A DNA stretch of 64,000 bases, taken from Bacillus nitratireducens. GTDB lineage: Bacteria > Bacillota > Bacilli > Bacillales > Bacillaceae_G. Positions 30,621-59,800 of the stretch are shown here, piece after piece. The position numbers and the translations under genes were made by a program. The stretch is taken from the NCBI RefSeq assembly GCF_001884135.1, contig NZ_MAOC01000091.1, positions 248,001-312,000 on the forward strand, given 5' to 3'. How positions within the stretch are numbered: position 1 is the first letter of the stretch; each line of letters opens with the position of its first letter. The notes below the pieces were generated by a model. The model was not told the DNA's origin and ran no database searches. It was given only the letters and a program-made list of their open reading frames with translations.

Positions 30621-31658
30621 TTATGCTAAATGTTGCTGCGTCACACAGTGAATCATGCCACCATACGCAAACAGTTCATTTACATAAATACCGACAATTC
30701 TTCTTCCTGGAAACTGCCCTTCAATGATTTGAAGCCCTAACTTGTCATGTTCATCGCCATATATAGGAACTAATACAACTTCATTTCCAATATAAAAGTT
30801 CAAATATGAGCCCTTACAGTCTGCTTCTTTTACCACTTTTCTTGTCACCGGTACTGGTATGAGCTGAAATGGCTTTCCATCTATATTTCTTGCTTGTCTC
30901 AATTCTTGATAATGCTTTTCGTACGCCTCCAAAAGGTATGATTCGCTTTCCCCGAAAGGATCATATTCATAAAGAATTGTATTTTCATTTACAAAACGCG
31001 CTGCCCCATCAATATGGTAATCTGTATCTTCATCATAATTATCCTCTCCGCGAATACCAGTTATCCATATAAAATTCGTTACTCCCAAATACTTCGTTAA
31101 CTCTATTTCAATCTCTTCCTGACTTAGTGTAGGATTTCGATTTTCATTTATAATAGAAGTTTTTGCCGCCATTAAGGTGCCATTTCCATTTATCTCTATT
31201 CCTCCACCTTCTATACAAACACTAGATTTAACTTTTGGAATGCTATACATTCCACTTATTTTTTCCGGAATAACAGCATCATTTTCATATGGATATTTCT
31301 CCCCCCAGCCATTAAAAATCCAGTGTGTTAAGCAGAGATTGCCTTCCTTATCTTTTACAAAGATCGGTCCATTATCTCTTATCCAAACATCATCCGTTTC
31401 TTCAACTAAAAAACTAATTTTGTCCATATTTACGTTTGCTTCCATTAACTTCGATTGGACATGCACTTTTTCTTCCTCATCAAATACAACAATATGCACA
31501 TTCTCTCCGTAATGAAGCTCCTTTGCCATCGTTACCCAAATATCATCTAACTTAGCTCTATAACCTTCACCTCTATGAGCCTTATCATGAGGCCATTGGA
31601 GCCATGTTCCCTCATGTTTTTTCCACTCAGCAGGCATATAAAATAAACTATTTCTCAT
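30621..31658 (-). CDS. Agmatine deiminase family protein (cytosolic)
   Basis: A 345-aa guanidine-modifying (PAD-type) enzyme. The motifs are DDVWIRDNGPIFV (about 88), EGGGIEINGNG (about 150), the His-Asp pair in DYHIDGAARF (about 212-221) and the nucleophile Cys338 in GGMIHCVTQQ. Agmatine deiminase turns agmatine into N-carbamoylputrescine and ammonia. No putrescine carbamoyltransferase or carbamate kinase is nearby. No signal peptide is present. It is read from a MerR-type promoter at 31690-31720 shared in design with two neighbouring genes. Substrate choice (agmatine or another guanidine) is unproven. Confidence 0.88.
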   Translation of the reverse strand: MRNSLFYMPAEWKKHEGTWLQWPHDKAHRGEGYRAKLDDIWVTMAKELHYGENVHIVVFDEEEKVHVQSKLMEANVNMDKISFLVEETDDVWIRDNGPIFVKDKEGNLCLTHWIFNGWGEKYPYENDAVIPEKISGMYSIPKVKSSVCIEGGGIEINGNGTLMAAKTSIINENRNPTLSQEEIEIELTKYLGVTNFIWITGIRGEDNYDEDTDYHIDGAARFVNENTILYEYDPFGESESYLLEAYEKHYQELRQARNIDGKPFQLIPVPVTRKVVKEADCKGSYLNFYIGNEVVLVPIYGDEHDKLGLQIIEGQFPGRRIVGIYVNELFAYGGMIHCVTQQHLA

Positions 31659-34444: not shown

Positions 34445-35422
34445 TTAAAACCAATCAAATATTTTTCTGATTGAAGAACCTTCATTCTGATCGTTCAGCC
34501 TTTTCATTTTTGAAGGTAACAAATGACTAGGACAATACCACGTTAAACAATTCATGGCGCCTCCCATTGTCGATATTTCTCCTACATGACTTTGAATAAC
34601 TTGTTTCTCAGTATGCTGTTGAATATATCGTAAAACTTCCTCATCTTTAGCTAATCCAAACTTAGGAACGTAAAGCGTATCACATGTTTCTAACATATTT
34701 ATATATAAACCTTTTGCTGACGCTATCTCTTCATCGTATTGACCCTTCTCTGTATATGACGAAGGAACAACTATAAATTCAGCCTCTGGCATTTGCTCTT
34801 GAATAATCTCTTGAACCTTATATCTAAATTCATGATCCCCTAAAAAATCACTAATAAACATTGTATGTTCATCAATAAATTTAACCATCCCGTCTGCGTG
34901 TGCAAATACATCTCCCTCTTCAGCAGGAATAATAATAACCCGACTCACATCCAAATCCCATTCCAGTTGCTCTATAATTTCTTCTTCCGTCCAATCATAA
35001 TTATCATCAAATATGCGTTCCGTTAATATAACAGTATCTTTTTTATTCCAAATAAGATTTCCACCGTCTAATATCAATGGAGACTTCACATATTCAAAAT
35101 CGTTCTTTTTCAACCATTTATTAAATTGTTGATCTAAATATCTCCATTGATCTTTCGGTAAGTAATTTGGTTGATATTTAAATTTAACTAAATGATTTGT
35201 GACAACTGGTGCAACATCTCTTAGCCAAATATCATCATACTCAAAAAAGCTTGTATGAAAGTCTTGCTCTTCAACGGATAAAGAAACAAGTTGATCAGTA
35301 AATGATTTATTTTCATTTAAGTATTCATTAAAATAAATCAGGTCTTCATAAAATGGACGATAATATGCATTTGATTTATCTGGTATTGCAGTAAAAATAA
35401 TTCCATTATGTTTTTGTTCCAT
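34445..35422 (-). CDS. Agmatine deiminase/peptidyl-arginine deiminase family protein, divergent paralogue
   Basis: A 325-aa member of the PAD_porph family. It has DDIWLRDVAPVV (about 72), ILDGGNLIW (about 120), FAHADGMVKF (about 179) and the nucleophile Cys292 in GGAMNCLTWY. The C-terminal block differs from the HCVTQQ form of its two neighbours, so it forms a separate subgroup and perhaps acts on another guanidine compound. No signal peptide is seen. GCGAGGT precedes ATG 35422; the 30-codon-longer frame lacks a site. It ends 44 bp before the MerR/GyrI gene and probably shares its transcript. Confidence 0.82.
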   Translation of the reverse strand: MEQKHNGIIFTAIPDKSNAYYRPFYEDLIYFNEYLNENKSFTDQLVSLSVEEQDFHTSFFEYDDIWLRDVAPVVTNHLVKFKYQPNYLPKDQWRYLDQQFNKWLKKNDFEYVKSPLILDGGNLIWNKKDTVILTERIFDDNYDWTEEEIIEQLEWDLDVSRVIIIPAEEGDVFAHADGMVKFIDEHTMFISDFLGDHEFRYKVQEIIQEQMPEAEFIVVPSSYTEKGQYDEEIASAKGLYINMLETCDTLYVPKFGLAKDEEVLRYIQQHTEKQVIQSHVGEISTMGGAMNCLTWYCPSHLLPSKMKRLNDQNEGSSIRKIFDWF

Positions 35423-35639
35423 ATTATTTACCTCGCTTTTTAATAATGGTTGAATAACTAATTTCACTATGCCAACTATTTCTCTTTTCATAACAATGTT
35501 CGAAACGTGCACATTTCATGAATGGATTATAGCACGGAGAAATATTATATATTTATATAAAAAATATAAAGCTGTCGTTAAGCCGTAAACTGACTCTTGA
35601 CAAGGTTTTTTAATTTTAATCGTCGTACACAATGAGGGA

Positions 35640-37340: not shown

Positions 37341-38498
37341 TTACTTCAATTGAATCGGTTGTTGCTGTGTCACACAATGGATCATTCCACCATTTTTATA
37401 AAGTTCTCTCACATCAATTCCCACTACTTTACGATCCGGATATAACTTCTGAATCGTATCGTTTGCGATTTTGTCATTTGGATCGTTATAGTTAGGCACC
37501 AATACAACTTTATTTCCAATATAATAATTGATATACGACCCTTTATAATCAAGAGTTTTTCCATCTTCTAAAGTAACTTTATCTTTACTAAGTGGTAAGT
37601 ATTCATACTTATATTTCTGTCCTGAAGCATTTTTTGCATCTAACAATTTATCCATATCTTTGTTTGACAAGCCCCATTCAGCCAAGTCATCTTCTGCCAT
37701 CGTTACGATTGTAGATTTATCATGAAATTTAGCAAATCCATCAATATGAAAATCAGTAATATCTAAATTAGGCACCCCATCTAACCAAATAAAGTTTGTC
37801 ACCCCAAGGTCACTTATATATTTTTCAATTTCCTCTTCTGATAAATCAGGATTTCTATTTTTATTCGTTACTGCGCTTCGAGTTAATAAAGCAGTCCCAT
37901 TGCTGTCTAATTCAATTGCGCCACCTTCAAGGACAAATTTCCCCCAATCAATTCTTTCAATCCCTAATTGTTTACTAACATTCTCACGTATACGGGCATC
38001 ATTTTTATAAGGAGTTTTCTTTCCCCAACCATTAAATGCTGGATCTAATATTTTTAGGTTTTTATTATTATCATAAACAAAAATCGGTCCACTATCTCTT
38101 GCCCACACATCATCTGTAGGAGCGATAAAGAAATCAACTTTAGCCATATTCAGCCCTTTATCTATTAAAAGCTTATTGATTCGCTCTTTCTCCTCCTCAT
38201 CATATGCAACAATGTGGACTTTTTCACCCTCAGTTAAAGCACTTGCCATCTTAATCCAAATAGGTTCGACTTCTTGTTTATACTCTTGACCATATGTGTA
38301 TTCATGAGGCCATTGTAGCCATGTACCTTCATGTTTATCTTTTTCATCCGGCATCGTATATTTTCCAGCGTTTTTCTGTACCTCTACTTTTTTATCCTCT
38401 TTCCCTTTGACATTTTCATTATTCCCTTCAAAAGAACATCCACTAATAATCGTTATAGATAATGTAGCGATTAAACAAAACTTTACTACTTTTTTCAT
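37341..38498 (-). CDS. Agmatine deiminase family lipoprotein (surface-exposed)
   Basis: A 385-aa precursor. The signal peptide and lipobox IISGC (Cys21) are followed by a charged linker and then a complete agmatine-deiminase domain. This holds DDVWARDSGPIFV, LEGGAIELDSNG, DFHIDGFAKF and the nucleophile Cys375 in GGMIHCVTQQ. All core catalytic motifs are kept, so it should be active outside the membrane. Agmatine deiminases are normally cytosolic, which makes this form unusual. It is a close paralogue of the protein at 30621. A MerR-type promoter lies upstream at 38527-38557. Confidence 0.88.
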   Translation of the reverse strand: MKKVVKFCLIATLSITIISGCSFEGNNENVKGKEDKKVEVQKNAGKYTMPDEKDKHEGTWLQWPHEYTYGQEYKQEVEPIWIKMASALTEGEKVHIVAYDEEEKERINKLLIDKGLNMAKVDFFIAPTDDVWARDSGPIFVYDNNKNLKILDPAFNGWGKKTPYKNDARIRENVSKQLGIERIDWGKFVLEGGAIELDSNGTALLTRSAVTNKNRNPDLSEEEIEKYISDLGVTNFIWLDGVPNLDITDFHIDGFAKFHDKSTIVTMAEDDLAEWGLSNKDMDKLLDAKNASGQKYKYEYLPLSKDKVTLEDGKTLDYKGSYINYYIGNKVVLVPNYNDPNDKIANDTIQKLYPDRKVVGIDVRELYKNGGMIHCVTQQQPIQLK

Positions 38499-47429: not shown

Positions 47430-48014
47430 TTACTTTTGAAAAATACCACGCGCAACAATTTCCCATGACTTTTGAAATTCTTCGTTTATCTTCTCTTCTT
47501 TCCATCGCTCAGAAAAAGCAGGATGATAAAACGATGATAGGAGTCCAAAAATCGTATGCGCTAAAAATAAACTGTCTTGTTTTTCAATCTCGTTACGCTC
47601 TATCCCTTGATTTATAACCTTTTCCAGTTGCCTAACTAATCTTTCTTCGTGTTTTTGGATAACAGCATTCTTTTGCTGCACTAACGAACTATTCAATGTA
47701 AATAGCTCTTCATTTTCCAGTAATTCTTTCTTTTTAAGTTGGAACAAACATAAGAACCACTCTTGTAAAATCACTGCTGTTTCTCCGTCTTTTCCACTAA
47801 TTTTCTCAAGTTGATCTGAATACTTTAATAACCATCTTTCCAAAATAGCGTCGCGAAGTGCTGCCTTACTACGAAAATAGGAGTATAAAGCTGCATGACT
47901 AACATCAAGGGATTTCGCAATACTAACAAGCGTCGTCCTACTCCATCCATATTTAATCAATTCCTTTTCCGCTGCATCCAAAACAACATTTCTCGTTAAT
48001 GCTTTTTCTGTCAT
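47430..48014 (-). CDS. TetR family transcriptional regulator
   Basis: A 194-aa regulator with an N-terminal HTH (TLVSIAKSLDVSHAALYSYF, about 28-47) and an all-helical ligand domain. ATG 48014 follows GGTGAG; a GTG three codons earlier is possible. Dyads at 48069-48096 and 48147-48185, directly upstream, look like its operators. It precedes helD and the 198-aa gene, so ligand release would raise their expression. The ligand is unknown. Confidence 0.88.
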   Translation of the reverse strand: MTEKALTRNVVLDAAEKELIKYGWSRTTLVSIAKSLDVSHAALYSYFRSKAALRDAILERWLLKYSDQLEKISGKDGETAVILQEWFLCLFQLKKKELLENEELFTLNSSLVQQKNAVIQKHEERLVRQLEKVINQGIERNEIEKQDSLFLAHTIFGLLSSFYHPAFSERWKEEKINEEFQKSWEIVARGIFQK

Positions 48015-48068
48015 TTTTCTCACCGTCCACTTTATTTACATAATAAAATTAGCTTCTGTTATTTCAAC

Positions 48069-48226: not shown

Positions 48227-49843
48227 TTAATTACATAATAAACGATTCATTATCTCTTCAAGTAATATACCCGGCTTTACTACCTCATTTTCCGTACGCC
48301 ATCCAATAAATCCATCTGGTCTTATTACTACCGCTCCTCCATTTTCTATCCCGTATAATTTTCTAAAATAGTTACTTTGATCGATGAAATCACCAGTTAA
48401 ACCCACCTGATACACTTTTATCTTTACTCCTAATCCGGATGAAACAACATTTGCAGCTTCAGTCCAAGTACTAGGCTCTGCTCCAGTAAGTAACACAAAG
48501 TTGCTACCAAATAGATCAAGTACAGAAACTTCTTTTCCTTCATAAGTTCCCCAAAAATGTGGCGCACGCGTTCCCGGGCGTCCGTTCAAATCAACTATAT
48601 TCATTCTATGCGGTGTGTTACACTCGTCTATAATTGCTTCTGAGCAATACTGATAACCAGCAGTGACAGCTAAACTATCCATATTACTCAAATTACCTTC
48701 TTCTCTGCCCGCAGCACGAAATAATATACTACTCGCATGGTCCGTCGTTAATTTTGCAACAGGATATCTCTCGTCATGATACGTTTCTAACAATTTTGGA
48801 TTTGCTTTCCCTTTTATAACAGCCGCTAATTTCCAAGCTAAATTATGCGCATCTTGTATTCCTGTATTTGAACCAAATCCTCCTGTTGGCGGCATAATAT
48901 GTGCTGAGTCACCAACTAAAAAGATGCGATTGTCCTGAAATTTTACCGCTGTACTTTCACTCGCTTCCCATGGTAAAACACTTAATATTTCTGGCTTAAT
49001 ATCCATACTTCCAATTGCAGTTTGAATAATTTGCTTACAGCGTTCTATAGAGAAATCCTCTGGTTGCTCCCCTTTTAGTGGATCATAAGCTACATGATAA
49101 ATCCATTTACTTTCGTTATCGACTGGAATAAGCGCGCCAATTACTTTTGGATGTCGTATCATAGTAAAACCGAATGCGTCTCCTTTAATACATTCACTTA
49201 AATCTGCTTCAAAATATATGTTCATATAATAACCACCGATTGTACCACGGCCCTCGGTTGAAATACCTAACTGTTCACGTATTTTACTTTTCGCTCCATC
49301 TGCTGCGATTACATAATCACAATAAATAGTACTCTCTTCCTTCGTTTCACAATCTCGAATAACCGCTATTACTCCGTTCTCATTTTGCTCATAAGAAACC
49401 AGCTCATGATAAAAAGATAGCTCTCCGCCTAACTTTTGCGCGTATTGTAACATCATCTCTTCTAAAGTAATTTGATAACAAGCAGTTTGTTTTGATGGGC
49501 TAATCTCTTCCACTTTACGAACTAAATTTTCGTTATTTTCATACTGAGCCGCCCTTATTTGTTCCAGCTCTTCATTATTTACCTCAGCTATTGTTTGAAC
49601 CGCAATTCTCCCGTGACAATTCTCTAACGCTTTACCAGCTAATCTAATCCTTTTTTCTAGACCTAATTCTCGAAATAATTCCATCGTACGAAAAGTGATT
49701 CCACCTGCTTTCGGATGAATCGCAGTAGACGGATGCCTTTCTATAAGCACATAATCAATGTTATGTTTTGCAAGAAATAATGCAGACGATAATCCTGATA
49801 ATCCCCCTCCAACAATTAAAACTGGTACATGTTTCGATTTCAT
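48227..49843 (-). CDS. FAD-dependent aromatic-ring hydroxylase (TetX/RdmE/Rox-like group A monooxygenase)
   Basis: A 538-aa class A flavoprotein. It shows GxGxxG in LIVGGGLSGLSSALFLA (about 8-24), the DG motif region VIAADGAKSKIRE (about 180) and the GD motif RIFLVGDSAHIMPPTGGFG (about 306-325). A C-terminal thioredoxin-like extension (WTEAANVVSSGLGVKIKVY...IRPDGFIGWR) matches polyketide hydroxylases and antibiotic-modifying monooxygenases. ATG 49843 follows GGAGGG. It uses NAD(P)H and O2; substrate unknown. It lies upstream of tetR-helD but is separated from it by a terminator. Confidence 0.88.
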   Translation of the reverse strand: MKSKHVPVLIVGGGLSGLSSALFLAKHNIDYVLIERHPSTAIHPKAGGITFRTMELFRELGLEKRIRLAGKALENCHGRIAVQTIAEVNNEELEQIRAAQYENNENLVRKVEEISPSKQTACYQITLEEMMLQYAQKLGGELSFYHELVSYEQNENGVIAVIRDCETKEESTIYCDYVIAADGAKSKIREQLGISTEGRGTIGGYYMNIYFEADLSECIKGDAFGFTMIRHPKVIGALIPVDNESKWIYHVAYDPLKGEQPEDFSIERCKQIIQTAIGSMDIKPEILSVLPWEASESTAVKFQDNRIFLVGDSAHIMPPTGGFGSNTGIQDAHNLAWKLAAVIKGKANPKLLETYHDERYPVAKLTTDHASSILFRAAGREEGNLSNMDSLAVTAGYQYCSEAIIDECNTPHRMNIVDLNGRPGTRAPHFWGTYEGKEVSVLDLFGSNFVLLTGAEPSTWTEAANVVSSGLGVKIKVYQVGLTGDFIDQSNYFRKLYGIENGGAVVIRPDGFIGWRTENEVVKPGILLEEIMNRLLCN

Positions 49844-50019
49844 ACATTTTCCCTCCACATATATTCTTCTGAGCTCAGTGACATAAATATAATCAAAAAA
49901 ACAACAAAAATATAGACTTATATTTCATTTTGAATTATCATATAGATAGATTACGCCCCAAATTTCTTTTTTCCTTTTATACATCTACAACTATGAGGAC
50001 TGTGTATGAATAAAAGGAA

Positions 50020-50044
50020 AAAAACAAAAAGAGCCTTCGTTATA
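50020..50044. repeat. Left half of an interrupted terminator hairpin
   Basis: AAAACAAAAAGAGCCTTCGT followed by TATA, ending in the ATA target duplication (50042-50044). The inverted other half is at 55193-55218. The region 49844-50019 shows no gene. Confidence 0.85.
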
Positions 50045-50054
50045 TGAACTGTAT

Positions 50055-50099
50055 CCCGAATCATGGACACTTAAAAAAGCCCCATGATTCGGGTTTTTT
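50055..50099. terminator. Hairpin just inside the left element end
   Basis: CCCGAATCATGG / CCATGATTCGGG, 12-bp perfect arms followed by a T run. IS elements often carry such a hairpin inside an end to block incoming transcription. Confidence 0.75.
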
Positions 50100-50159
50100 G
50101 TGTATTTTTATCAAAAAACCTCGTTATAATGGAACCAACGATAGAAATGAGGTACGGAG

Positions 50160-50230
50160 AATGAATGATGCATTGACTTTAAGTTAATTAGATTGATAAG
50201 AAAAAACCTATGCCCATGCATAGGTTTTTT
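50160..50230 (+). other. Remnant of an IS reading frame start followed by a terminator
   Basis: After a TATAAT and GGAGA, ATG 50161 encodes only MNDALTLS before a stop, which looks like the beginning of a lost orfA. The AAAAAACCTATGC / GCATAGGTTTTTT hairpin (50201-50230) follows and terminates the AcpS gene from the opposite side as well. Confidence 0.45.
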
Positions 50231-50262
50231 CTTCATTTCCTTCTATTATAATAGTAGATTAA

Positions 50263-50622
50263 TTACGCAAAATGAGTATCAGTCCAAATTACTTGTGATA
50301 TCACATTCGTACTGTTTCTTGTCACATCAATATGAAATTGATCTTCTGCCGTAATGTGACAGGTTTGTCTTGCTGCTGCGCTAAAATGTATTTCGTATTT
50401 TCCATCAATGTTTATTATCTCTATATCTTTCCACATCGTGTTCTTTTGAAAGCCAGTACCGATTGCCTTTACTGTCGCTTCTTTGATACACCACATAATA
50501 GAATAATTGATGTAATTTTCTTTTGCCCACAGTACTTCTTGCTTTGTAAATAGCTTTTGAAGTGCTTTTTTATTCTTCCATCTTTCAATCTCTGTAATAT
50601 CGATGCCTATTCCTTTAATCAT
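50263..50622 (-). CDS. AcpS-type 4'-phosphopantetheinyl transferase, cassette-specific
   Basis: A 119-aa holo-ACP synthase. The metal-binding GIGIDITEIERW (Asp8) and the WCIKEATVKAIGTG motif (Glu48, Lys residues) are both present. It activates apo-ACPs with the phosphopantetheine arm of CoA. A chromosomal acpS for fatty-acid synthesis must exist elsewhere, so this copy is likely dedicated to the ACP at 53366. The start overlaps the EamA stop by eight bases, so translation is coupled. It is last in the cassette operon. Confidence 0.88.
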   Translation of the reverse strand: MIKGIGIDITEIERWKNKKALQKLFTKQEVLWAKENYINYSIMWCIKEATVKAIGTGFQKNTMWKDIEIINIDGKYEIHFSAAARQTCHITAEDQFHIDVTRNSTNVISQVIWTDTHFA

Positions 50623-51541
50623 TTAAAGCGACTTTCTTGCTTTGATTTGCCGATTTTGCAGTCGCGATATATACACCGATTAATACAAATAACATACCGA
50701 TTACTTCTTTCCAACTCATGACAGAACCATAGAATACGACAGAAATTAAAGTCGTAACGATTGGTGTAAGGTTCAGATACATGCTCGCTTTGCTCGCCCC
50801 GATTTGCTCTACACCTTTATTGAAAATAATATATCCAACGAGCGTACCACATACAACCATATAAAACATTTCTAACCAGCTTTGTGCAGACATACTAGGT
50901 ACTTTGTCCCAACCCCCTTCATATAAGGAAGAGATTGCTAGGAAAACAGAGCCCATAACAGTCATTATTGTCGTAGCAAATAATGGTGAAACGTCTTTCA
51001 TGACAGCTTTCCCTACTAAACCATATATAACGCCGCATGCTAGAGCTGCTAAAAACAATAAATCCCCAACATTAAATGCTAAGGAAAGTAACATATCAAG
51101 AGATCCTTTTGTAATCACGATAATAACACCGACTAAAGATAGTACTAAACTGATTCCAACTTTACTGTTCCATTTTTCATTTAAAAAAAGAATCGAACCT
51201 AGTGTAACGAAGATTGGCATGGTTGCAATAATTAATGAACCATTGATAGCGGACGTATAGTGTACACCTAAAAAGAATAGAGCGTTATAGCCGAAAATAC
51301 CAGTTAACGCAACGAGTAATAGTCCTTTCCATCCTTTCTTGATAGAAGCCATATCCCATTCCGATTTAATTGTTAAATACACCATAAGGATGACACCTGC
51401 GATACCGAAACGAAGAGTAGCTGCGACTAATGGCGGGATTTCAGTTACAACATGTTCAGCTGTCGAGAAGGAACCGCCCCAAAACAAAGGAACTAGTAGA
51501 AGTAAGAAATAAATCTTGTTTGATTGGTTTTGATTTTGCAT
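50615..51541 (-). CDS. EamA/DMT family exporter
   Basis: A 308-aa membrane protein with ten helices in two EamA repeats (VPLFWGGSFSTAEHVVTEIP at the start, TLVGYIIFNKGVEQIGASKA in the second). Family members export amino acids, purine-like compounds or other small metabolites. AGGAGGT precedes the ATG. A 24-bp dyad at 51584-51607 is just upstream, so ArsR probably controls it. In this cassette it is the natural candidate to export the aminoketone product. Confidence 0.88.
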   Translation of the reverse strand: MQNQNQSNKIYFLLLLVPLFWGGSFSTAEHVVTEIPPLVAATLRFGIAGVILMVYLTIKSEWDMASIKKGWKGLLLVALTGIFGYNALFFLGVHYTSAINGSLIIATMPIFVTLGSILFLNEKWNSKVGISLVLSLVGVIIVITKGSLDMLLSLAFNVGDLLFLAALACGVIYGLVGKAVMKDVSPLFATTIMTVMGSVFLAISSLYEGGWDKVPSMSAQSWLEMFYMVVCGTLVGYIIFNKGVEQIGASKASMYLNLTPIVTTLISVVFYGSVMSWKEVIGMLFVLIGVYIATAKSANQSKKVALND

Positions 51542-51583
51542 CTTTGTACCTCCTAATTAGTTAAATTTGTAAGTTTCGTGTTT

Positions 51584-51607
51584 ACAGGTTCAAACTTATA
51601 AACTTGT
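51584..51607. promoter_or_regulatory. Probable ArsR operator, copy 1 (exporter)
   Basis: ACAGGTTCA-AACTTA-TAAACTTGT. It matches 21 of 24 positions of the dyad at 53352-53375. Both lie in front of cassette genes and only 12 bp from the arsR stop here. Confidence 0.65.
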
Positions 51608-51619
51608 TATACAAAAAAA

Positions 51620-51940
51620 TTAATATCCTGCTTCAATCGCAGATACTAATTCTTTCATATAAATAACGAAATTACTGGTTGTCAAAGAATAGTATACTTC
51701 TTTTCCGTGTTTCTTTGGTCTAACCAATTCTGCTTGCTTTAATATTTTTAAATGATGTGATACTGCAGGTCTAGAAATTGACATTTGTTCTGTTATTTGA
51801 GTTACATTTAAACCATCGGTTTTAAGTAAAATCATGATAATTTGTTGCCGATTTACATCGCCCAATGCTTGGAAAATGGGAGTCGTCAAATTGAATTGTT
51901 CAAGAATGTTTTCTCTGTTTTTGCATTCGTAATTTTCCAT
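51620..51940 (-). CDS. ArsR family winged-helix repressor
   Basis: A 106-aa ArsR/SmtB-type regulator with HTH block VTQITEQMSISRPAVSHHLK (about 47-66) and wing PKKHGKEVYYSL. It has no CVC-type metal pair in the recognition helix; the cysteine in YECKNRE is alone. It therefore probably senses an organic ligand or redox rather than metals. ATG 51940 follows AAGG. Dyads in front of the exporter and synthase are its likely targets. Confidence 0.85.
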   Translation of the reverse strand: MENYECKNRENILEQFNLTTPIFQALGDVNRQQIIMILLKTDGLNVTQITEQMSISRPAVSHHLKILKQAELVRPKKHGKEVYYSLTTSNFVIYMKELVSAIEAGY

Positions 51941-51974
51941 GATTCGCATCCTTTTTAATAAATATATTTATAAT

Positions 51975-52020
51975 GATACCATCAGCGCGGGGTTAATGCG
52001 GTAATGTTGCTGATGGTATC
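51975..52020 (-). other. Hairpin between synthase and arsR
   Basis: GATACCATCAGC-N22-GCTGATGGTATC, 12-bp perfect arms with a GC-rich loop and no clear T run. It could limit read-through from the synthase into arsR or be a regulatory RNA element. Another dyad, AACTATTGT-N19-ACAATAGTT, lies beside it at 52023-52059. Confidence 0.5.
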
Positions 52021-52073
52021 CCAACTATTGTAAGTATATCATCTTTTCTAACAATAGTTAGTAAATATAGGAA

Positions 52074-53267
52074 TTAAAATTTGAAAACTTCTTTTGCTTC
52101 TATTAATAGGTCCACAACTTTTTGGCATTCTTCAAGGGAGTGGCTACTTGTAACACCAATACGTAAGCGCCCTTTATTTACTGGTACACCTGGTGAAATG
52201 AATGCTGCTGTAAATAGTCCTCTTTCCATTAACCATGATGTAACACTCGCTGTTTTTTTGTCGTCGCCGACTAAAACAGGAACAATTTGACTAACCGTAT
52301 CTAGTAAATTAAAACCATTCTCTTGTAGTTTTTCGATTAGGTAAGAAGAATTTCTCCATAGGTCTTCTCTTAATTGTATGCCGTGTTCTTCCATATATGT
52401 TAAAGATGCAAGTGATGCGGCAGCAACTGCTGGTGTTGAACCTCTTGAACTCGTATATGATGGTGCATAATATCTAATGGCACTTTCGATTTCTTTATTT
52501 GTAACAATAAATCCACCAACACTACCTACAGCTTTACTCATTGTTCCTACGACAATATCTACTTGGTCTAAAACACCAAAATGTTCCGCTACACCTAAAC
52601 CATTGGGCCCTACAACACCAAATGAATGTGCTTCGTCAACCATGACAATTGCGTTATATTCTTTTGCAAGCACACAGATTTTATCTAACGGAGCATAATC
52701 TCCATCTGCGCTGAAGAGGCCATCGACTACGATGATTCTTTTTCCTTTATCCATGCTTTGTTTTAAGATTGATTCAAGCTTCTTTACGTTATTATGAGGG
52801 AAAGATCGGATTTGTGCACCTGATAACTGGCTCCCCATAAAGATGGAGATATGATTTAATCTGTCATTGATAATAACATCATCTGGACCAGCCATTACCG
52901 TTAACACACCGATATTTGCAGTCATTCCTGAAGGGAAGATAATACCAGCTGGCTTATTATATAATTTCGCAAGTTTGTTTTCTAATTCATTATGGATCGT
53001 TGTATGACCACAAAAGATTTGTGCACCATATGTATTTGTACCGAAATTTCGAATGGCTTCAATAGATTTTTGTTTTAAGTAATCATTTTGTGACAAACCA
53101 AGATAATCGCATGAACCAAACATTAACATTTTACCGTTTTCTTTTGTCGTAATGTAGTTGTCAGTTGTGGATTCAACTGTTGGGAAGAACGGATAAACGC
53201 CTTCTTTCTTCCATTCTTCGAATTTCTCTACATCAAATCGTGTACGCGTATCAACTGTAGTCGTCAT
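52074..53267 (-). CDS. Alpha-oxoamine synthase (KBL/BioF/SPT-like PLP enzyme)
   Basis: A 397-aa fold-type I PLP enzyme. Visible are FGSCDYLGLSQN (about 50-61), the PLP-stacking histidine in RLNHISIFMG (His139), the cofactor Asp-Glu-Ala-His in DEAHSFGVVGPNG (Asp211, His214) and the Schiff-base lysine in GTMSKAVGSVGG (Lys245). The family joins an amino acid to an acyl thioester with loss of CO2 to give an aminoketone (2-amino-3-ketobutyrate ligase, BioF, serine palmitoyltransferase, CqsA). The adjacent ACP and PPTase suggest the acyl donor is acyl-ACP. AAGGAG precedes the ATG, and a dyad operator lies about 85 bp upstream. Confidence 0.92.
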   Translation of the reverse strand: MTTTVDTRTRFDVEKFEEWKKEGVYPFFPTVESTTDNYITTKENGKMLMFGSCDYLGLSQNDYLKQKSIEAIRNFGTNTYGAQIFCGHTTIHNELENKLAKLYNKPAGIIFPSGMTANIGVLTVMAGPDDVIINDRLNHISIFMGSQLSGAQIRSFPHNNVKKLESILKQSMDKGKRIIVVDGLFSADGDYAPLDKICVLAKEYNAIVMVDEAHSFGVVGPNGLGVAEHFGVLDQVDIVVGTMSKAVGSVGGFIVTNKEIESAIRYYAPSYTSSRGSTPAVAAASLASLTYMEEHGIQLREDLWRNSSYLIEKLQENGFNLLDTVSQIVPVLVGDDKKTASVTSWLMERGLFTAAFISPGVPVNKGRLRIGVTSSHSLEECQKVVDLLIEAKEVFKF

Positions 53268-53351
53268 CTTATTAACTCCTTCTACGAATCATAATTTTCT
53301 TGCATATTGACTTTTATTTTAAAATCTGACTATTAACTTAAAAGAATTATA

Positions 53352-53375
53352 ACAAGTTTAAACTTCTAAACTTGT
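53352..53375. promoter_or_regulatory. Probable ArsR operator, copy 2 (synthase)
   Basis: ACAAGTTTA-AACTTC-TAAACTTGT, a perfect 9-bp dyad that overlaps the last codons of the ACP gene and lies in front of the synthase. Near-identical to copy 1 at 51584. Confidence 0.7.
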
Positions 53376-53638
53376 AAACATGTATAAACTGCTTTAACTA
53401 ATTCGTTAACAGTGGGCTTTGATTCTTTAGGGTTTAAGTGGTCTTCTACTTCCAGCTCTTGATCAAATTCATCTTGTAGTACAATCATAATTTCTGCAAA
53501 CAATAATGAATCCACATCTAGATCTTGTAAAGTTGCATCTAATGATACTTCATCTACTGAAGCTTCTTCCTTGATTACATTCGTGATTACTTCCTGCACT
53601 TGTTCATAAGTAAATTTTGTTCCTGTTACGTTTGTCAT
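53366..53638 (-). CDS. Acyl carrier protein
   Basis: A 90-aa acidic four-helix protein. The phosphopantetheine serine is Ser44 in DLDVDSLLFAEIMIVL. ATG 53638 has AAAGG upstream; a start six codons earlier is possible. Its length and the second helix fit stand-alone discrete ACPs of secondary metabolism rather than AcpP, which has DSLD. It should carry the acyl group used by the adjacent oxoamine synthase. Confidence 0.88.
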   Translation of the reverse strand: MTNVTGTKFTYEQVQEVITNVIKEEASVDEVSLDATLQDLDVDSLLFAEIMIVLQDEFDQELEVEDHLNPKESKPTVNELVKAVYTCLQV

Positions 53639-53766
53639 AACGCACAACCTTTCCATATTTTGTATTTTTTCTACAATTAGAAGTTTATTCCAAAAATCAA
53701 GAAATGTAAATAAGTTTTTCCGAAAAAATATTTTTTATTTTTAGAATTCTTAATGTATTCATTCTT

Positions 53767-54048
53767 CTAAACACGGACGAAATCGTTGGTGCATTCGAAT
53801 TGAATATACTCTTGTTTTTGCAGCAATTTCTCATGTATTTGCTTTAATTCTGACGCATACGAACTGTCTATTAACATAAAAAGTTCTGTTAAATGAATCA
53901 TAATCTCGATATCTGATAAGATCGTTTGCAGCTCTTTCTCAACCTGCTCCTTTTCTCCACAGTCTTCTAGTTTAATAAACTCGTATGTACAAAATTGCAA
54001 TTTCTCGTTTAGGTTCTGTATAAAACACTTGGTTTTTGCATCCATCAT
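53767..54048 (-). CDS. Small helical protein of the cassette (about 94 aa)
   Basis: Unknown family. All-helical with four cysteines (KCFIQ, QFCTYEF, EDCGEK, FECTND) and no signal peptide. It is the first gene of the operon, 129 bp before the ACP. Start ATG 54048 or 54045 follows AGGTGGGG. Possible roles are regulator or helper of acyl loading. Nothing in the sequence decides. Confidence 0.55.
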   Translation of the reverse strand: MMDAKTKCFIQNLNEKLQFCTYEFIKLEDCGEKEQVEKELQTILSDIEIMIHLTELFMLIDSSYASELKQIHEKLLQKQEYIQFECTNDFVRV

Positions 54049-54308
54049 TCTCACCCCACCTTCTAATACGCATGAGGATTCATAAGAGTATATTCAGATA
54101 TTGGGAATTATGTGTATAATTCTAACACAAAAAACTAAAACACGTTACATATAATAACAATATTATCCATAAATTTACAACATTTTTCCTTTACTTTGTA
54201 ATATTTTTGTATGTTTCTTGTAAGCAGAAGCGCAGTATAGACTTTCTTACGTAAGGTAACAGGTCATGGTTTCTGTTATGGATAGATCGCCACAAAATTT
54301 TTTCGAAA

Positions 54309-55143
54309 ATGAGAGGTAAACGAAAATCCACAAGGAAAAGGTCCTAGCCAAATCTTTTTAGAGAATGGGTTTGACTTAGCTGTGATTGGTGAGAAGAAAC
54401 CAAAACAATGCTTGAAACGTTGGCGAAGAACCTTTGAACAATTTGGAGAGGAAGGCTTTTATACAGAACACTGTGGGAAAGGAAGTACGGGACGCCCTTC
54501 GGAAAAACCCCTCTCTCCTGATAAAAAATTAAAGAAAGCGGAAGTACGTATTTCGTTTTTAGAAGCAGAATTGACATTCCTAAAAAAGTTAGACGAACTC
54601 GCAAGGCAGGCGTTACAGAAGAAGCGTTAACAGCACGAGAAACATACACACGATTCCAATTCCCACGTATGGTGCGTTACCTTTGCATACTGACTGGGAT
54701 AAGTCGGAGTGGATACTATGCGTGGCTCCATCAGACAGATAAACAGCTGCAAAAAGAACGCAACGATGAAACAGATTATGAATGGATATCGTCTATCAAA
54801 CATTAGATAACTTGGAAGAGAGATTAGGAGAAGTCATTCATACTGAAGCGCTTCTACATTCAGACCAAGGTATTCATTATACACACCCTGAATTTCAAAA
54901 ACGTGTAAGAAAAATCGGGATCAGACAGTCTATGTCCTGTAGGGGCAATTGTTTAGACAATGCACCATTGGAACCTTCCTTGGTCATATGAAAGATGAAT
55001 TAGATTATAAAGATTGTCAAACCTTTGAATCCCTTGAGCTCAACATAAAGAATTATATGGAGGAGTATAATTCTAATCGTTATCAGTGGACATTAAAAAA
55101 GATGGCTCCGATCCAATATCGGAACCACCTTTTAAGTGCTTGA
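54309..55143 (+). pseudogene. Degenerate IS3-family transposase (orfA and orfB remnants)
   Basis: The orfA part reads after an early break: HTH segment (CLKRWRRTFEQFGEEGF), GSTGRP and the leucine-zipper end KKAEVRISFLEAELTFLKKL. The orfB N-terminus (LCILTGISRSGYYAWL) follows in a shifted frame. It then jumps to the C-terminal integrase part (HSDQGIHYTHPEFQKRVRK, SMSCRGNCLDNAPLE), with a frameshift before KDELDYKDCQTFESL. The first catalytic Asp region is deleted. It cannot make active transposase. The upstream gap 54055-54308 holds the cassette promoter and nothing else visible. Confidence 0.88.
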
Positions 55144-55192
55144 TTTTTCAGGGCTTTTTTATTAAAATATCCATTTTATAGGGTACAGTTCA

Positions 55193-55218
55193 ATATAACG
55201 AAGGCTCTTTTTGTTTTT
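55193..55218. repeat. Right half of the interrupted terminator hairpin
   Basis: ATATAACGAAGGCTCTTTTT followed by GTTTTT; it begins with the ATA target duplication (55193-55195). Joined to the left half without one ATA it makes a hairpin with 12-bp arms (GAGCCTTCGTTA / TAACGAAGGCTC) and T-run tails. The remaining gap to 55396 holds the selO promoter. Confidence 0.85.
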
Positions 55219-58221: not shown

Positions 58222-59316
58222 ATGAACGTTCAACTACAAGGTAATGAACAAATTACGAAATTATTTAATGATTGGTATTTAGCTATGCTTAAACAAGATG
58301 TGTCTCAGGCGACAAACTTAAAACATGAAATTGAGGAAAAGGAACTAAACTTTGAGGAAGATGAAAACTTAGCATTATATCATTCCTTACTAGATTTTCG
58401 ATATAAAGTTTTAGTAGATAGTTTAAGCATTTCAAAAGATAGTTTTGATAAAATAGATTCTTACGTAATCTCATCTAATCACCCACTGTCTTACTACTAT
58501 CATTTCTTTAAAGGCATTTATGCAACTTTAACCACAGACTATAACTTAGCTAGCGAACATTATGAACAGGCTAAATTATTATTAGTAAATAACACTGATA
58601 ATCTAGAGCAGGCTGAATTTTATTATCGGATGGCTATTTTCCATTATCACTTTTACCAACCAATTGAATCTATTGAATATGCGACAAAGGCTAAAGAGAT
58701 TTTCAATAAACAAGCTGGCTACGAAGTTAAAGTTGGATTATGTAAAAATACATTAGGTGCCTCATTTGTATATTTAAAACAATATGAACAAGCAGAAGAG
58801 CAATATAATTCAGCAATACACCTTTTACAAAAATCCGATGAAAAAGAATTAATTTTAAGTGTACGTAATAATTTGGGTTGGTTATATGCCAGTCAAAACC
58901 TCTCCACACTCGCAATACGTCACCTATCAGAAGTAACTGAAAAGAGGCCTACACATTTCAAAGCTCTCTTCTTACAAGCAAGAGAACACTCTAAACTAGA
59001 TGAAACAAGTATTGCTGAGGGGTTAATCCAAAAAGGATTAAAAATTTGTATGGAATTAAATAATGAAGAATATATATATCATTTTAAAATTCTAAACGAA
59101 ATAAATAATAATGTTCCTTCTGAAGAATTAGAAACAATTATTCTTAAAGGAATTACGTATTTCGACAAAGAATTATTATATAACTACACTCAAGAATACT
59201 CAGAAAAATTAGCTGTTAAATTTTATGGTGAAAATAACCACATTAAGGCAAGCGAATATTTTCATAAGGCGTTACAGGCAAAAGAAAAAACATTTGAGAA
59301 AGGGGCATTGAAATGA
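58222..59316 (+). CDS. rap: Rap family TPR regulator
   Basis: A 364-aa, all-helical protein with an N-terminal three-helix bundle (about 1-70) and then TPR repeats (YYYHFFKGIYATLTTDYNLA, FYYRMAIFHYHFYQPIESIE, KNTLGASFVYLKQYEQAEEQ, NNLGWLYASQNLSTLAIRHL). This order and length are those of Rap phosphatases and anti-activators, which act on Spo0F or ComA-type targets. GAGGGG precedes the ATG. It overlaps a downstream phr-like gene by 4 bp (ATGA), the classic Rap-Phr layout. Confidence 0.9.
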   Translation: MNVQLQGNEQITKLFNDWYLAMLKQDVSQATNLKHEIEEKELNFEEDENLALYHSLLDFRYKVLVDSLSISKDSFDKIDSYVISSNHPLSYYYHFFKGIYATLTTDYNLASEHYEQAKLLLVNNTDNLEQAEFYYRMAIFHYHFYQPIESIEYATKAKEIFNKQAGYEVKVGLCKNTLGASFVYLKQYEQAEEQYNSAIHLLQKSDEKELILSVRNNLGWLYASQNLSTLAIRHLSEVTEKRPTHFKALFLQAREHSKLDETSIAEGLIQKGLKICMELNNEEYIYHFKILNEINNNVPSEELETIILKGITYFDKELLYNYTQEYSEKLAVKFYGENNHIKASEYFHKALQAKEKTFEKGALK

Positions 59317-59501
59317 TTAAAAAAATTGGCTCTGTTTTTTTAGGACTATCTGTTTTCGGTATTTTAGCTACTGGTATTCATAGTTCAATTACATACCAAG
59401 CGGGTCATGCTGATCTTCCTGCACCACAAAGACCTGACTTTGTTCAATCTGTTGACGTAAGTAAAGACTACAACTCAACAACAGCTGTAAAAGCGCTTTA
59501 A
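59313..59501 (+). CDS. phr: Phr-type signalling peptide precursor (62 aa)
   Basis: ATG 59313 overlaps the rap stop (ATGA). The N-terminus is a Sec-type signal (MIKKIGSVFLGLSVFGILAT), followed by a polar C-terminal part with PAPQRPDFVQ and the end NSTTAVKAL. Phr precursors are exported, trimmed to five to seven residues and re-imported through Opp to block the partner Rap. The precursor is longer than usual (about 40-45 aa). The mature peptide probably comes from the last 20 residues but cannot be fixed here. AAGGGG lies before the start. Confidence 0.8.
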   Translation: MIKKIGSVFLGLSVFGILATGIHSSITYQAGHADLPAPQRPDFVQSVDVSKDYNSTTAVKAL

Positions 59502-59591: not shown

Positions 59592-59785
59592 TGCCTCCGA
59601 CGGGATTCGAACCCGCACTCCTTTCGTAAGCATAGGCTAAGGGGAACACGCTTCCCTACGGAATTTCACCGACAGGAGTTTCACCTGTCTCAGCTTATTT
59701 GCTTTTCGGTGCTTCTGAAACCTTCGCCTTGCGACCCGGTTCTACACTGTTTTCCGGCGCTCTTCCCTTCTAGAGCTACGGAGGC
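59592..59785 (-). ncRNA. About 194-nt RNA with tRNA-like ends and a large inserted core
   Basis: On the reverse strand the 5' end GCCTCCG pairs with CGGAGGC at the 3' end (7-bp acceptor-like stem). A D-arm-like GCTC-TAGAAGGGAA-GAGC follows the 5' strand. A T-arm with GCGGG-TTCGAAT-CCCGT precedes the 3' strand. In place of the anticodon arm are about 130 nt with several small hairpins (GACAGG/CCTGTC, GGGAA/TTCCC, CCGG/CCGG). No CCA is encoded and there is no anticodon loop of normal size. It is too short for a group I intron-containing tRNA. Terminator at 59508-59536 lies downstream. It may be a tRNA mimic or a processed structured RNA. Confidence 0.65.
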
Positions 59786-59800
59786 AGTTTTTCTTTCAAG

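What the first reader, a model, noticed from the sequence alone, without database searches (positions are those of the whole stretch)
50045..55192. Mobile cassette: alpha-oxoamine synthase, ACP, dedicated PPTase, exporter and ArsR inside IS3-type ends
Six reverse-strand genes form what looks like a complete minimal pathway: acyl carrier protein, its own phosphopantetheinyl transferase, a PLP alpha-oxoamine synthase, an EamA exporter, an ArsR regulator and a small helical protein. There is no ketosynthase, so the acyl chain probably comes from the fatty-acid pool. The expected product is an aminoketone from an amino acid and an acyl-ACP, similar in logic to CqsA or serine palmitoyltransferase, possibly a signal or toxin. 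The whole set is enclosed by IS150-like ends with a target duplication. I know of no described system with this exact gene set.
Basis: partly seen in the sequence, partly recalled or inferred. Interest (0 to 1): 0.9.

Follow-up and report, generated by a model that had tools for sequence, protein, structure and literature searches.

The report
Small-molecule gene cassette inside dead transposon
Six bacterial genes that look like a tiny self-regulated pathway for making and exporting an amino-ketone sit inside one worn-out jumping element; the central enzyme belongs to an uncharacterised branch of a known enzyme family, so the product is unknown.

Summary
On the minus strand at 50263-54054 lie an AcpS-type phosphopantetheinyl transferase, an EamA exporter, an ArsR-type repressor, a PLP alpha-oxoamine synthase (AOS), an acyl carrier protein and a 95-aa orphan, between the ends of an IS3/IS150-type element (50045-55192) with an ATA target duplication. 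The element is one split copy: a relative has the two pieces 171 bp apart, the window 4212 bp. Its transposase is broken; it sits in the loop of a perfect terminator-like hairpin. The AOS is not the threonine-pathway KBL. It misses all AOS cut-offs listed and pairs at 100/100 only with a Streptomyces clavuligerus enzyme (55-56% identity) that lies beside prolyl-dehydrogenase-like, carrier and adenylation genes. That suggests a carrier-bound, perhaps non-fatty acyl donor. Two matching palindromes (0.15 expected) precede the synthase and exporter genes, probable ArsR operators. Most likely a carrier-dependent aminoketone pathway, product unknown. No loading enzyme was found among the proteins scanned, no strain comparison was possible, and whether the cassette moved with the IS is open. 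New variant of a known kind.

The parts
50045..50180 (+). left piece of one IS3/IS150-type element: left inverted repeat plus the region up to about the start of orfA; right limit approximate
   Evidence: window 50027-50130 matches L007 724-829; 50045-50180 scores 93 against a maximum of 46 in 200 shuffles
50198..50233 (.). 16-bp perfect hairpin, probable terminator at the left end of the cassette
   Evidence: (I9)
50263..50622 (-). AcpS-type 4'-phosphopantetheinyl transferase, 119 aa
   Evidence: Pfam ACPS 48.2 bits, TIGR00556 47.5 (cut-off 45.35)
50615..51541 (-). EamA-family exporter, 308 aa; its end overlaps the start of the PPTase gene
   Evidence: Pfam EamA 160.7 bits; overlap
51584..51607 (.). 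probable operator, 2 mismatches from ACAAGTTTA-N6-TAAACTTGT, before the exporter gene
   Evidence: 2 sites in 64 kb, 0.15 expected; I1
51620..51949 (-). ArsR-type repressor, 109 aa
   Evidence: NF033788 78.8 bits (cut-off 55)
52074..53267 (-). PLP-dependent alpha-oxoamine synthase, 397 aa, distinct subfamily
53352..53375 (.). probable operator, exact ACAAGTTTA-N6-TAAACTTGT, before the synthase gene and overlapping the end of the ACP gene
53366..53656 (-). acyl carrier protein, 96 aa, with DSL motif
   Evidence: Pfam PP-binding 35.6 bits; DSL read by eye
53767..54054 (-). 95-aa protein of no known family, predicted three helices
54290..55192 (+). right piece of the same IS: decayed orfA/orfB and right inverted repeat; left limit uncertain (between 54055 and 54343)
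50020..50045 (.). left arm of the interrupted hairpin (with the ATA target duplication 50042-50044)
   Evidence: (I2)
55193..55218 (.). right arm of the interrupted hairpin (with the ATA target duplication 55193-55195)
   Evidence: (I2)

Best explanation
A small specialised-metabolite cassette. The AcpS-type enzyme puts a phosphopantetheine arm on the dedicated carrier protein (inferred). The carrier receives an acyl or aminoacyl group by a loading step that is not encoded in the cassette. The alpha-oxoamine synthase condenses that carrier-bound thioester with an amino acid, losing CO2, and gives an alpha-aminoketone (reaction class from family and catalytic residues; substrates inferred). The EamA protein exports the product or a derivative (inferred). 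The ArsR-type repressor binds two palindromes, before the exporter-PPTase genes and before the synthase, and is released by a small molecule of the pathway (inferred). The block sits inside one decayed IS3/IS150-type copy, between its left end and orfA, and the IS sits in the loop of a terminator-like hairpin (shown).
For: Family assignments. Catalytic positions H139, S186, D211, H214, K245 and R369 are identical in 22 of 22 aligned AOS (their roles are recalled from AOS structures). The AOS pairs at 100/100 with the S. clavuligerus enzyme, identical to it in all 34 active-region columns printed, and that gene is followed by a dehydrogenase whose best solved match is a prolyl-ACP dehydrogenase, a PP-binding protein and an adenylation domain, so a carrier-bound donor is plausible for the subfamily. 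Five of the 19 plasmid AOS loci I fetched have an annotated ACP just before the AOS (L013, L015, L016, L023, L026). Carrier use is demonstrated for rhodobacterial SPT (PMC9386255, abstract). Two operator-like palindromes against 0.15 expected.
Against: No adenylation, ketosynthase or acyl-ACP synthetase gene in the cassette or among 29 other window proteins scanned. One operator lies between the carrier gene and the synthase gene, so they may be transcribed apart. The 95-aa protein is unexplained. The S. clavuligerus carrier is only marginally similar to the window ACP (E 0.002 in a single comparison). 13 of the other 18 annotated or unannotated plasmid AOS loci besides the five above show no ACP directly before the AOS, as expected for a family that mostly uses CoA. 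No second copy of the cassette was found, so the linkage rests on one locus.
Confidence: 0.55

Rival explanations
1. The carrier is filled from the fatty-acid pool and the product is a lipid-like long-chain aminoketone, as in bacterial sphingolipid synthesis.
For: Best NCBIfam score is serine palmitoyltransferase of the CFB group (336.4 bits); best solved structures are serine palmitoyltransferases (256.3 bits); after S. clavuligerus the nearest row by path in the tree is a Parabacteroides SPT-type row (2.7, against 2.76 for a KBL); SPT-ACP pairs are known (PMC9386255, abstract).
Against: 336.4 is far under that model's cut-off of 640. In the tree the window AOS groups with S. clavuligerus and, less surely, a Phocaeicola plasmid AOS, not with the SPT rows, though the fork that parts them from the SPT rows is marked open. 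Position 83 is Q where 19 of 22 rows have R, and S273, A187 and M144 differ from every SPT-type row. No acyl-ACP synthetase was seen among the window proteins scanned.
Confidence: 0.15
2. The cassette is one part of a split pathway: adenylation and tailoring enzymes lie elsewhere in the genome, and the carrier is loaded with an amino acid such as proline, as the S. clavuligerus locus suggests.
For: 55-56% identity and shared unusual residues with an AOS that sits next to prolyl-dehydrogenase-like, carrier and adenylation genes.
Against: Nothing of the kind among the 29 window proteins scanned; the whole genome was not available. A dedicated exporter and repressor suggest a self-contained unit.
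Confidence: 0.2
3. An ordinary metabolic AOS (threonine-pathway KBL, BioF or aminolevulinate synthase) that happens to lie near an ACP.
For: Same fold family.
Against: Cut-offs missed: bioF 330.9 of 426.45, KBL 328 of 460, ALAS 260 of 338.55; separate pair with 100/100 support; no tdh, biotin or haem gene among the neighbours scanned.
Confidence: 0.05
4. The cassette is decaying or silent: it landed in a dead IS and the genes no longer make a product.
For: The IS is broken; the loading step is missing; sigma-70-like sites are not in excess in the region (18 found, 22.8 expected).
Against: All six cassette ORFs are open with catalytic residues kept; three of six starts (EamA, AOS, 95-aa) have a ribosome-binding-like sequence by eye; the operator-like sites are kept.
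Confidence: 0.05

Closest known systems
AOS of a Streptomyces clavuligerus megaplasmid locus (L003:14953-16155, pCLA1)
   Same: 55-56% identity over nearly full length, identical in the 34 active-region columns printed, a carrier-protein gene two genes downstream
   Different: sits in an NRPS-type cluster with SbnA- and SbnB-type genes, a prolyl-dehydrogenase-like gene and an adenylation domain, none of which is in the window cassette; no paper in the library holds both the species name and 'oxoamine synthase'
Rhodobacterial serine palmitoyltransferase with dedicated AcpR and acyl-ACP synthetase AasR (PMC9386255, abstract)
   Same: AOS that uses a dedicated carrier protein
   Different: has a loading enzyme; the abstract names no dedicated PPTase, exporter or repressor; a Sphingomonas SPT-type AOS is 33% identical to the window's (L023)
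Prodigiosin PigH-type AOS (L013, L015, L016; the name is recalled, L016 has a neighbour annotated PigD)
   Same: AOS beside an ACP, and a PPTase in two of the three stretches shown (none listed)
   Different: extra N-terminal sequence, ketosynthase or polyketide synthase and AMP-binding genes alongside; 37-38% identity
Alaremycin-type operons (AOS, GNAT, oxidoreductase, with an exporter in one)
   Same: very small AOS cassettes on plasmids (L019, L021)
   Different: annotated as 5-aminolevulinate synthase, no carrier protein; the alaremycin label is recalled, not from a call
Mobile insertion cassettes of the Bacillus cereus group (MIC231)
   Same: passenger genes between IS ends
   Different: MIC231 is named in PMC6542083 (passages); its IS231/IS4 nature and lack of transposase are recalled; here the ends are IS3-type and a transposase remnant remains

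Membership tests
Glycine C-acetyltransferase (KBL), threonine pathway | NCBIfam equivalog score over cut-off | tested here: not met
   PRK06939 328 of 460, TIGR01822 269.7 of 493
Glycine C-acetyltransferase (KBL), threonine pathway | tdh partner next to it | tested here: not met
   neighbours are ArsR and ACP; KBL loci L018 and L020 do have tdh
Serine palmitoyltransferase | NCBIfam equivalog score over cut-off | tested here: not met
   NF047600 336.4 of 640, NF047599 308.3 of 500, NF047603 237.7 of 670
Serine palmitoyltransferase | condenses serine with a palmitoyl thioester | not testable with these tools
   no assay
Alpha-oxoamine synthase superfamily | PLP lysine, stacking histidine, Asp-X-X-His, carboxylate-binding arginine | tested here: met
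   K245, H139, D211, H214, R369 in 22 of 22 rows; roles recalled
AcpS-type phosphopantetheinyl transferase | Pfam ACPS and TIGR00556 over cut-off | tested here: met
   48.2 of 25 and 47.5 of 45.35
Housekeeping holo-ACP synthase (acpS equivalog) | TIGR00516 over cut-off | tested here: not met
   37.4 of 59.8
IS3 family, IS150-like | terminal inverted repeats and short target duplication | tested here: met
   34-nt repeat at 71%, ATA duplication; the 3-4 bp rule for IS150 is recalled
IS3 family, IS150-like | working transposase | tested here: not met
   orfB matches in three frames, residues 70-186 of 306 without a match
Mobile insertion cassette | passenger genes transposed between the same IS ends at more than one site | tested here: inconclusive
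   only one copy seen; whole genome not held
ArsR/SmtB repressors | family score over cut-off | tested here: met
   NF033788 78.8 of 55; the SdpR subfamily model is not met, 74.1 of 100

The most novel reading that the evidence does not exclude
The cassette defines the smallest stand-alone carrier-dependent AOS pathway: a new AOS subfamily (shared with S. clavuligerus, marked by H88, M144, A187, S273 and R275, with Q83 also in one Phocaeicola row) that acts on a carrier-bound, non-fatty acyl group, with the dedicated AcpS-type enzyme itself charging the carrier by moving an acyl-phosphopantetheine straight from an acyl-CoA, so that no separate loading enzyme is needed.
Probability: 0.12. Interest if true: 0.75.

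Novelty: new variant of a known kind. Interest (0 to 1): 0.5.

Why it matters
If right, a carrier protein, its activating enzyme, one PLP synthase, an exporter and a repressor suffice for a transferable small-molecule pathway, which cluster-finding tools that look for ketosynthases or NRPS modules could miss (inference). It also points to an uncharacterised AOS subfamily, seen so far in S. clavuligerus and in the window's host, which looks Bacillus-like but is not named.

Tried and rejected
Searches without result: relatives of the AOS in viral contigs with the single protein and with the two-sequence alignment; of the 95-aa protein, PPTase and ACP in viral contigs; of the 95-aa protein in plasmids; of the joined empty-site palindrome in viral contigs. 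The ACP matched 2 plasmid records and the PPTase 18, weakly; the only record in both lists (Acetoanaerobium) has the two matches more than a million bases apart. In the phages collection 19 records had AOS matches at 25-36% identity. The genome-contig scan used six exact peptides of the window AOS and gave 2 relatives at 32-33%; it would not have found the S. clavuligerus type, so it excludes only close relatives in the genomes held. PADLOC gave matches for the ArsR protein only (21 families), so a defence system is not favoured. The fold of the 95-aa protein matched nothing at E 0.001 or better. No direct repeat of 8-11 bases and no inverted repeat of 9-11 bases was found between the two cassette-IS junction stretches, so how the cassette entered the IS is unknown. 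Base composition does not mark the cassette as foreign: 34.1% G+C against 35.0% for the window. A threonine-pathway KBL was rejected.

Papers: PMC9386255 and PMC1525189, abstract and outline; PMC6211511, PMC6542083 and PMC6053186, passages; all others search listings only. The statement that no such gene set was found in print rests, open-access papers only.
Full report
What is there. The window has six minus-strand genes between 50263 and 54054: PPTase (119 aa), EamA exporter (308 aa), ArsR-type repressor (109 aa), AOS (397 aa), ACP (96 aa) and a 95-aa protein. Five are supported by Pfam above the curated cut-offs. The 95-aa protein has no significant match in Pfam (one at E 0.15, under cut-off), NCBIfam, PADLOC or PHROGs and no plasmid match. 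AlphaFold without an alignment gives three helices at mean pLDDT 80.5 for the best of five models, the other four ranging from 75.0 down to 46.5; Foldseek finds no PDB match at E 0.001 or better.

The element around it. The inverted repeats end at 50045 and 55192 (I3) and are bordered by ATA on both sides. BLAST against an IS3-family element of a Peribacillus simplex plasmid (L007) places its left end on window 50027-50130 (this match includes 18 bases of flank) and its orfA on window 54343 onwards. The two matches are 171 bp apart in L007 and 4212 bp apart in the window. So one IS copy was split between its left end and orfA. The left piece scores 93 against a maximum of 46 in 200 shuffles; 54201-54343 scores 33 against a maximum of 52, so the right junction cannot be placed exactly. 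The right piece is decayed: parts of a related orfB (306 aa, from L008) match in three frames and residues 70-186 have no match.

Target. Outside the IS the flanks form a 26-nt perfect inverted repeat (I2). Joined with one ATA, they fold into a hairpin of -31.0 kcal/mol. The L007 copy also lies between partly complementary flanks, 12 of 18 positions at the best of 16 offsets, without a shuffle control. Of six sequences examined (window and L007-L011) only these two had both ends recognised by the patterns used, so 2 were scored and 4 were not. Insertion of IS elements into palindromes is known for REP sequences (PMC1525189, abstract).

The synthase. It misses the cut-off of every AOS model listed in NCBIfam (25 of 27 matching families were shown): SPT 336.4 of 640, bioF 330.9 of 426.45, KBL 328 of 460, ALAS 260 of 338.55, CqsA-like 215.8 of 428. 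Among 701 plasmid records with a match all are under 60% identity; the three best ranked are S. clavuligerus records at 56.0%, the next in rank is at 37.8%, and the highest other identity among the 30 rows listed is 38.1%. I aligned the window AOS with 21 others: 19 chosen from the plasmid hits to cover known types, and the two loci, which are partial. It pairs with S. clavuligerus at 100/100; the next fork, with a Phocaeicola plasmid AOS, is weaker (90/85), and of 19 inner branches 7 are starred and 7 open. By path the next nearest row is a Parabacteroides SPT-type row (2.7), then a KBL (2.76). Row labels such as PigH, SPT, KBL or AlmA are mine, from gene context or annotation. Six catalytic positions are conserved in 22 of 22. 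Two residues shared only by this pair replace near-invariant ones: S273 (F in 19 of 20 others) and A187 (M in 18 of 20); M144 replaces D in 12 of 20. Position 83 is Q in the pair and in the Phocaeicola row, R in the other 19.

The relative's context. In S. clavuligerus the AOS is followed by an acyl-CoA-dehydrogenase-type protein whose best solved match is a prolyl-ACP dehydrogenase (4irn, 408.9 bits; next a butyryl-CoA dehydrogenase, 309.2), a PP-binding protein and an adenylation domain; SbnA- and SbnB-type genes, over those models' cut-offs, lie before it. The adenylation domain's best solved matches are linear gramicidin synthetase (two stretches, 472.5 bits), then an L-proline carrier ligase (358.9 bits). 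The prodigiosin PigA and the RedW models are not met by the dehydrogenase (426.5 of 500, 428.8 of 650). In the anatoxin pathway such a trio makes 1-pyrroline-5-carboxyl-ACP (PMC6053186, passages). So the AOS subfamily plausibly takes a carrier-bound, non-fatty donor. This is inference from neighbours, not shown. The record carries no annotation in this stretch; the genes are my reading of ORFs, and the ORF used for the adenylation protein starts inside the carrier gene in another frame, so its true start is later.

Regulation. The palindrome ACAAGTTTA-N6-TAAACTTGT occurs twice in 64 kb at up to 3 mismatches, exactly at 53352-53375 and with 2 mismatches at 51584-51607; 0.15 are expected and none of 100 shuffles reached two. 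The pattern was derived from these sites, so the count tests rarity elsewhere, not an independent prediction. A shorter 12-base version was not enriched (9 found, 7.56 expected). Promoter-like sites in the region are not in excess (18 found, 22.8 expected); terminator-like ones are (8 found, 2.6 expected). The two palindromes lie before the synthase and before the exporter-PPTase pair, which fits autoregulation by the ArsR protein. Binding was not tested.

Missing parts. No loading enzyme lies in the cassette. Outside the element I scanned 29 window proteins with Pfam: 1, 8, 20 (these at E 1e-10, where 2 of 20 had no family). The window has 65 ORFs of 100 aa or more, some surely spurious. None of the 29 is a ketosynthase, adenylation or acyl-ACP ligase protein; the rest were not scanned. 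The host genome is not held, so loading in trans is possible. The source organism is not told; a Bacillus-like host is a guess.

Verdict. A real, compact, carrier-linked AOS cassette with an uncharacterised synthase subfamily inside a dead IS. The general logic is known (SPT with AcpR, PMC9386255 abstract; prodigiosin-type AOS beside carriers). What is new is the combination and the subfamily. I rate it a new variant of a known kind, interest 0.5.

Noticed in passing
59592-59786, minus strand: An unannotated stretch of 195 nt ends like a tRNA (T-arm, matching acceptor stem, D-arm-like hairpin, read from the sequence and the fold) but carries a long insert. It is 92-97.5% identical in 15 plasmid records of Listeria, Cytobacillus, Priestia, Peribacillus and Bacillus arachidis (18 records match in all). 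Rfam's tRNA model scores 19.3, under its gathering score of 29; ARAGORN finds no tRNA; no phage record matches; the fold is only slightly better than shuffles (z -1.30). Possibly an odd tRNA-like RNA.
   Followed up: partly
30621-31658, 34445-35512, 37341-38498, minus strand: Three proteins of the peptidyl-arginine deiminase (PAD_porph) family within 8 kb.
   Followed up: no
48227-49858 and 47430-48023, minus strand: FAD monooxygenase scoring best, but under cut-off, with aklavinone hydroxylase and methanobactin MbnF models, beside a TetR regulator, just outside the IS.
   Followed up: no
58222-59316 and about 59313-59501, plus strand: A Rap-type phosphatase (RapH_N) followed by a short ORF that looks by eye like a Phr peptide precursor.
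   Followed up: no
L019 and L021: Plasmid operons with a hemA-annotated AOS, a GNAT and an oxidoreductase (with an MFS transporter in Rahnella), which look like alaremycin clusters; that name is recalled.
   Followed up: no
L012 (and similar Bacteroidales plasmid hits): A plasmid-borne AOS next to a TetR regulator, weakly grouped with the window AOS and sharing Q at position 83.
   Followed up: no
L007:743-2237: The full-length IS3-type relative also lies between partly complementary terminator-like flanks, so this IS group may aim at terminator hairpins.
   Followed up: partly
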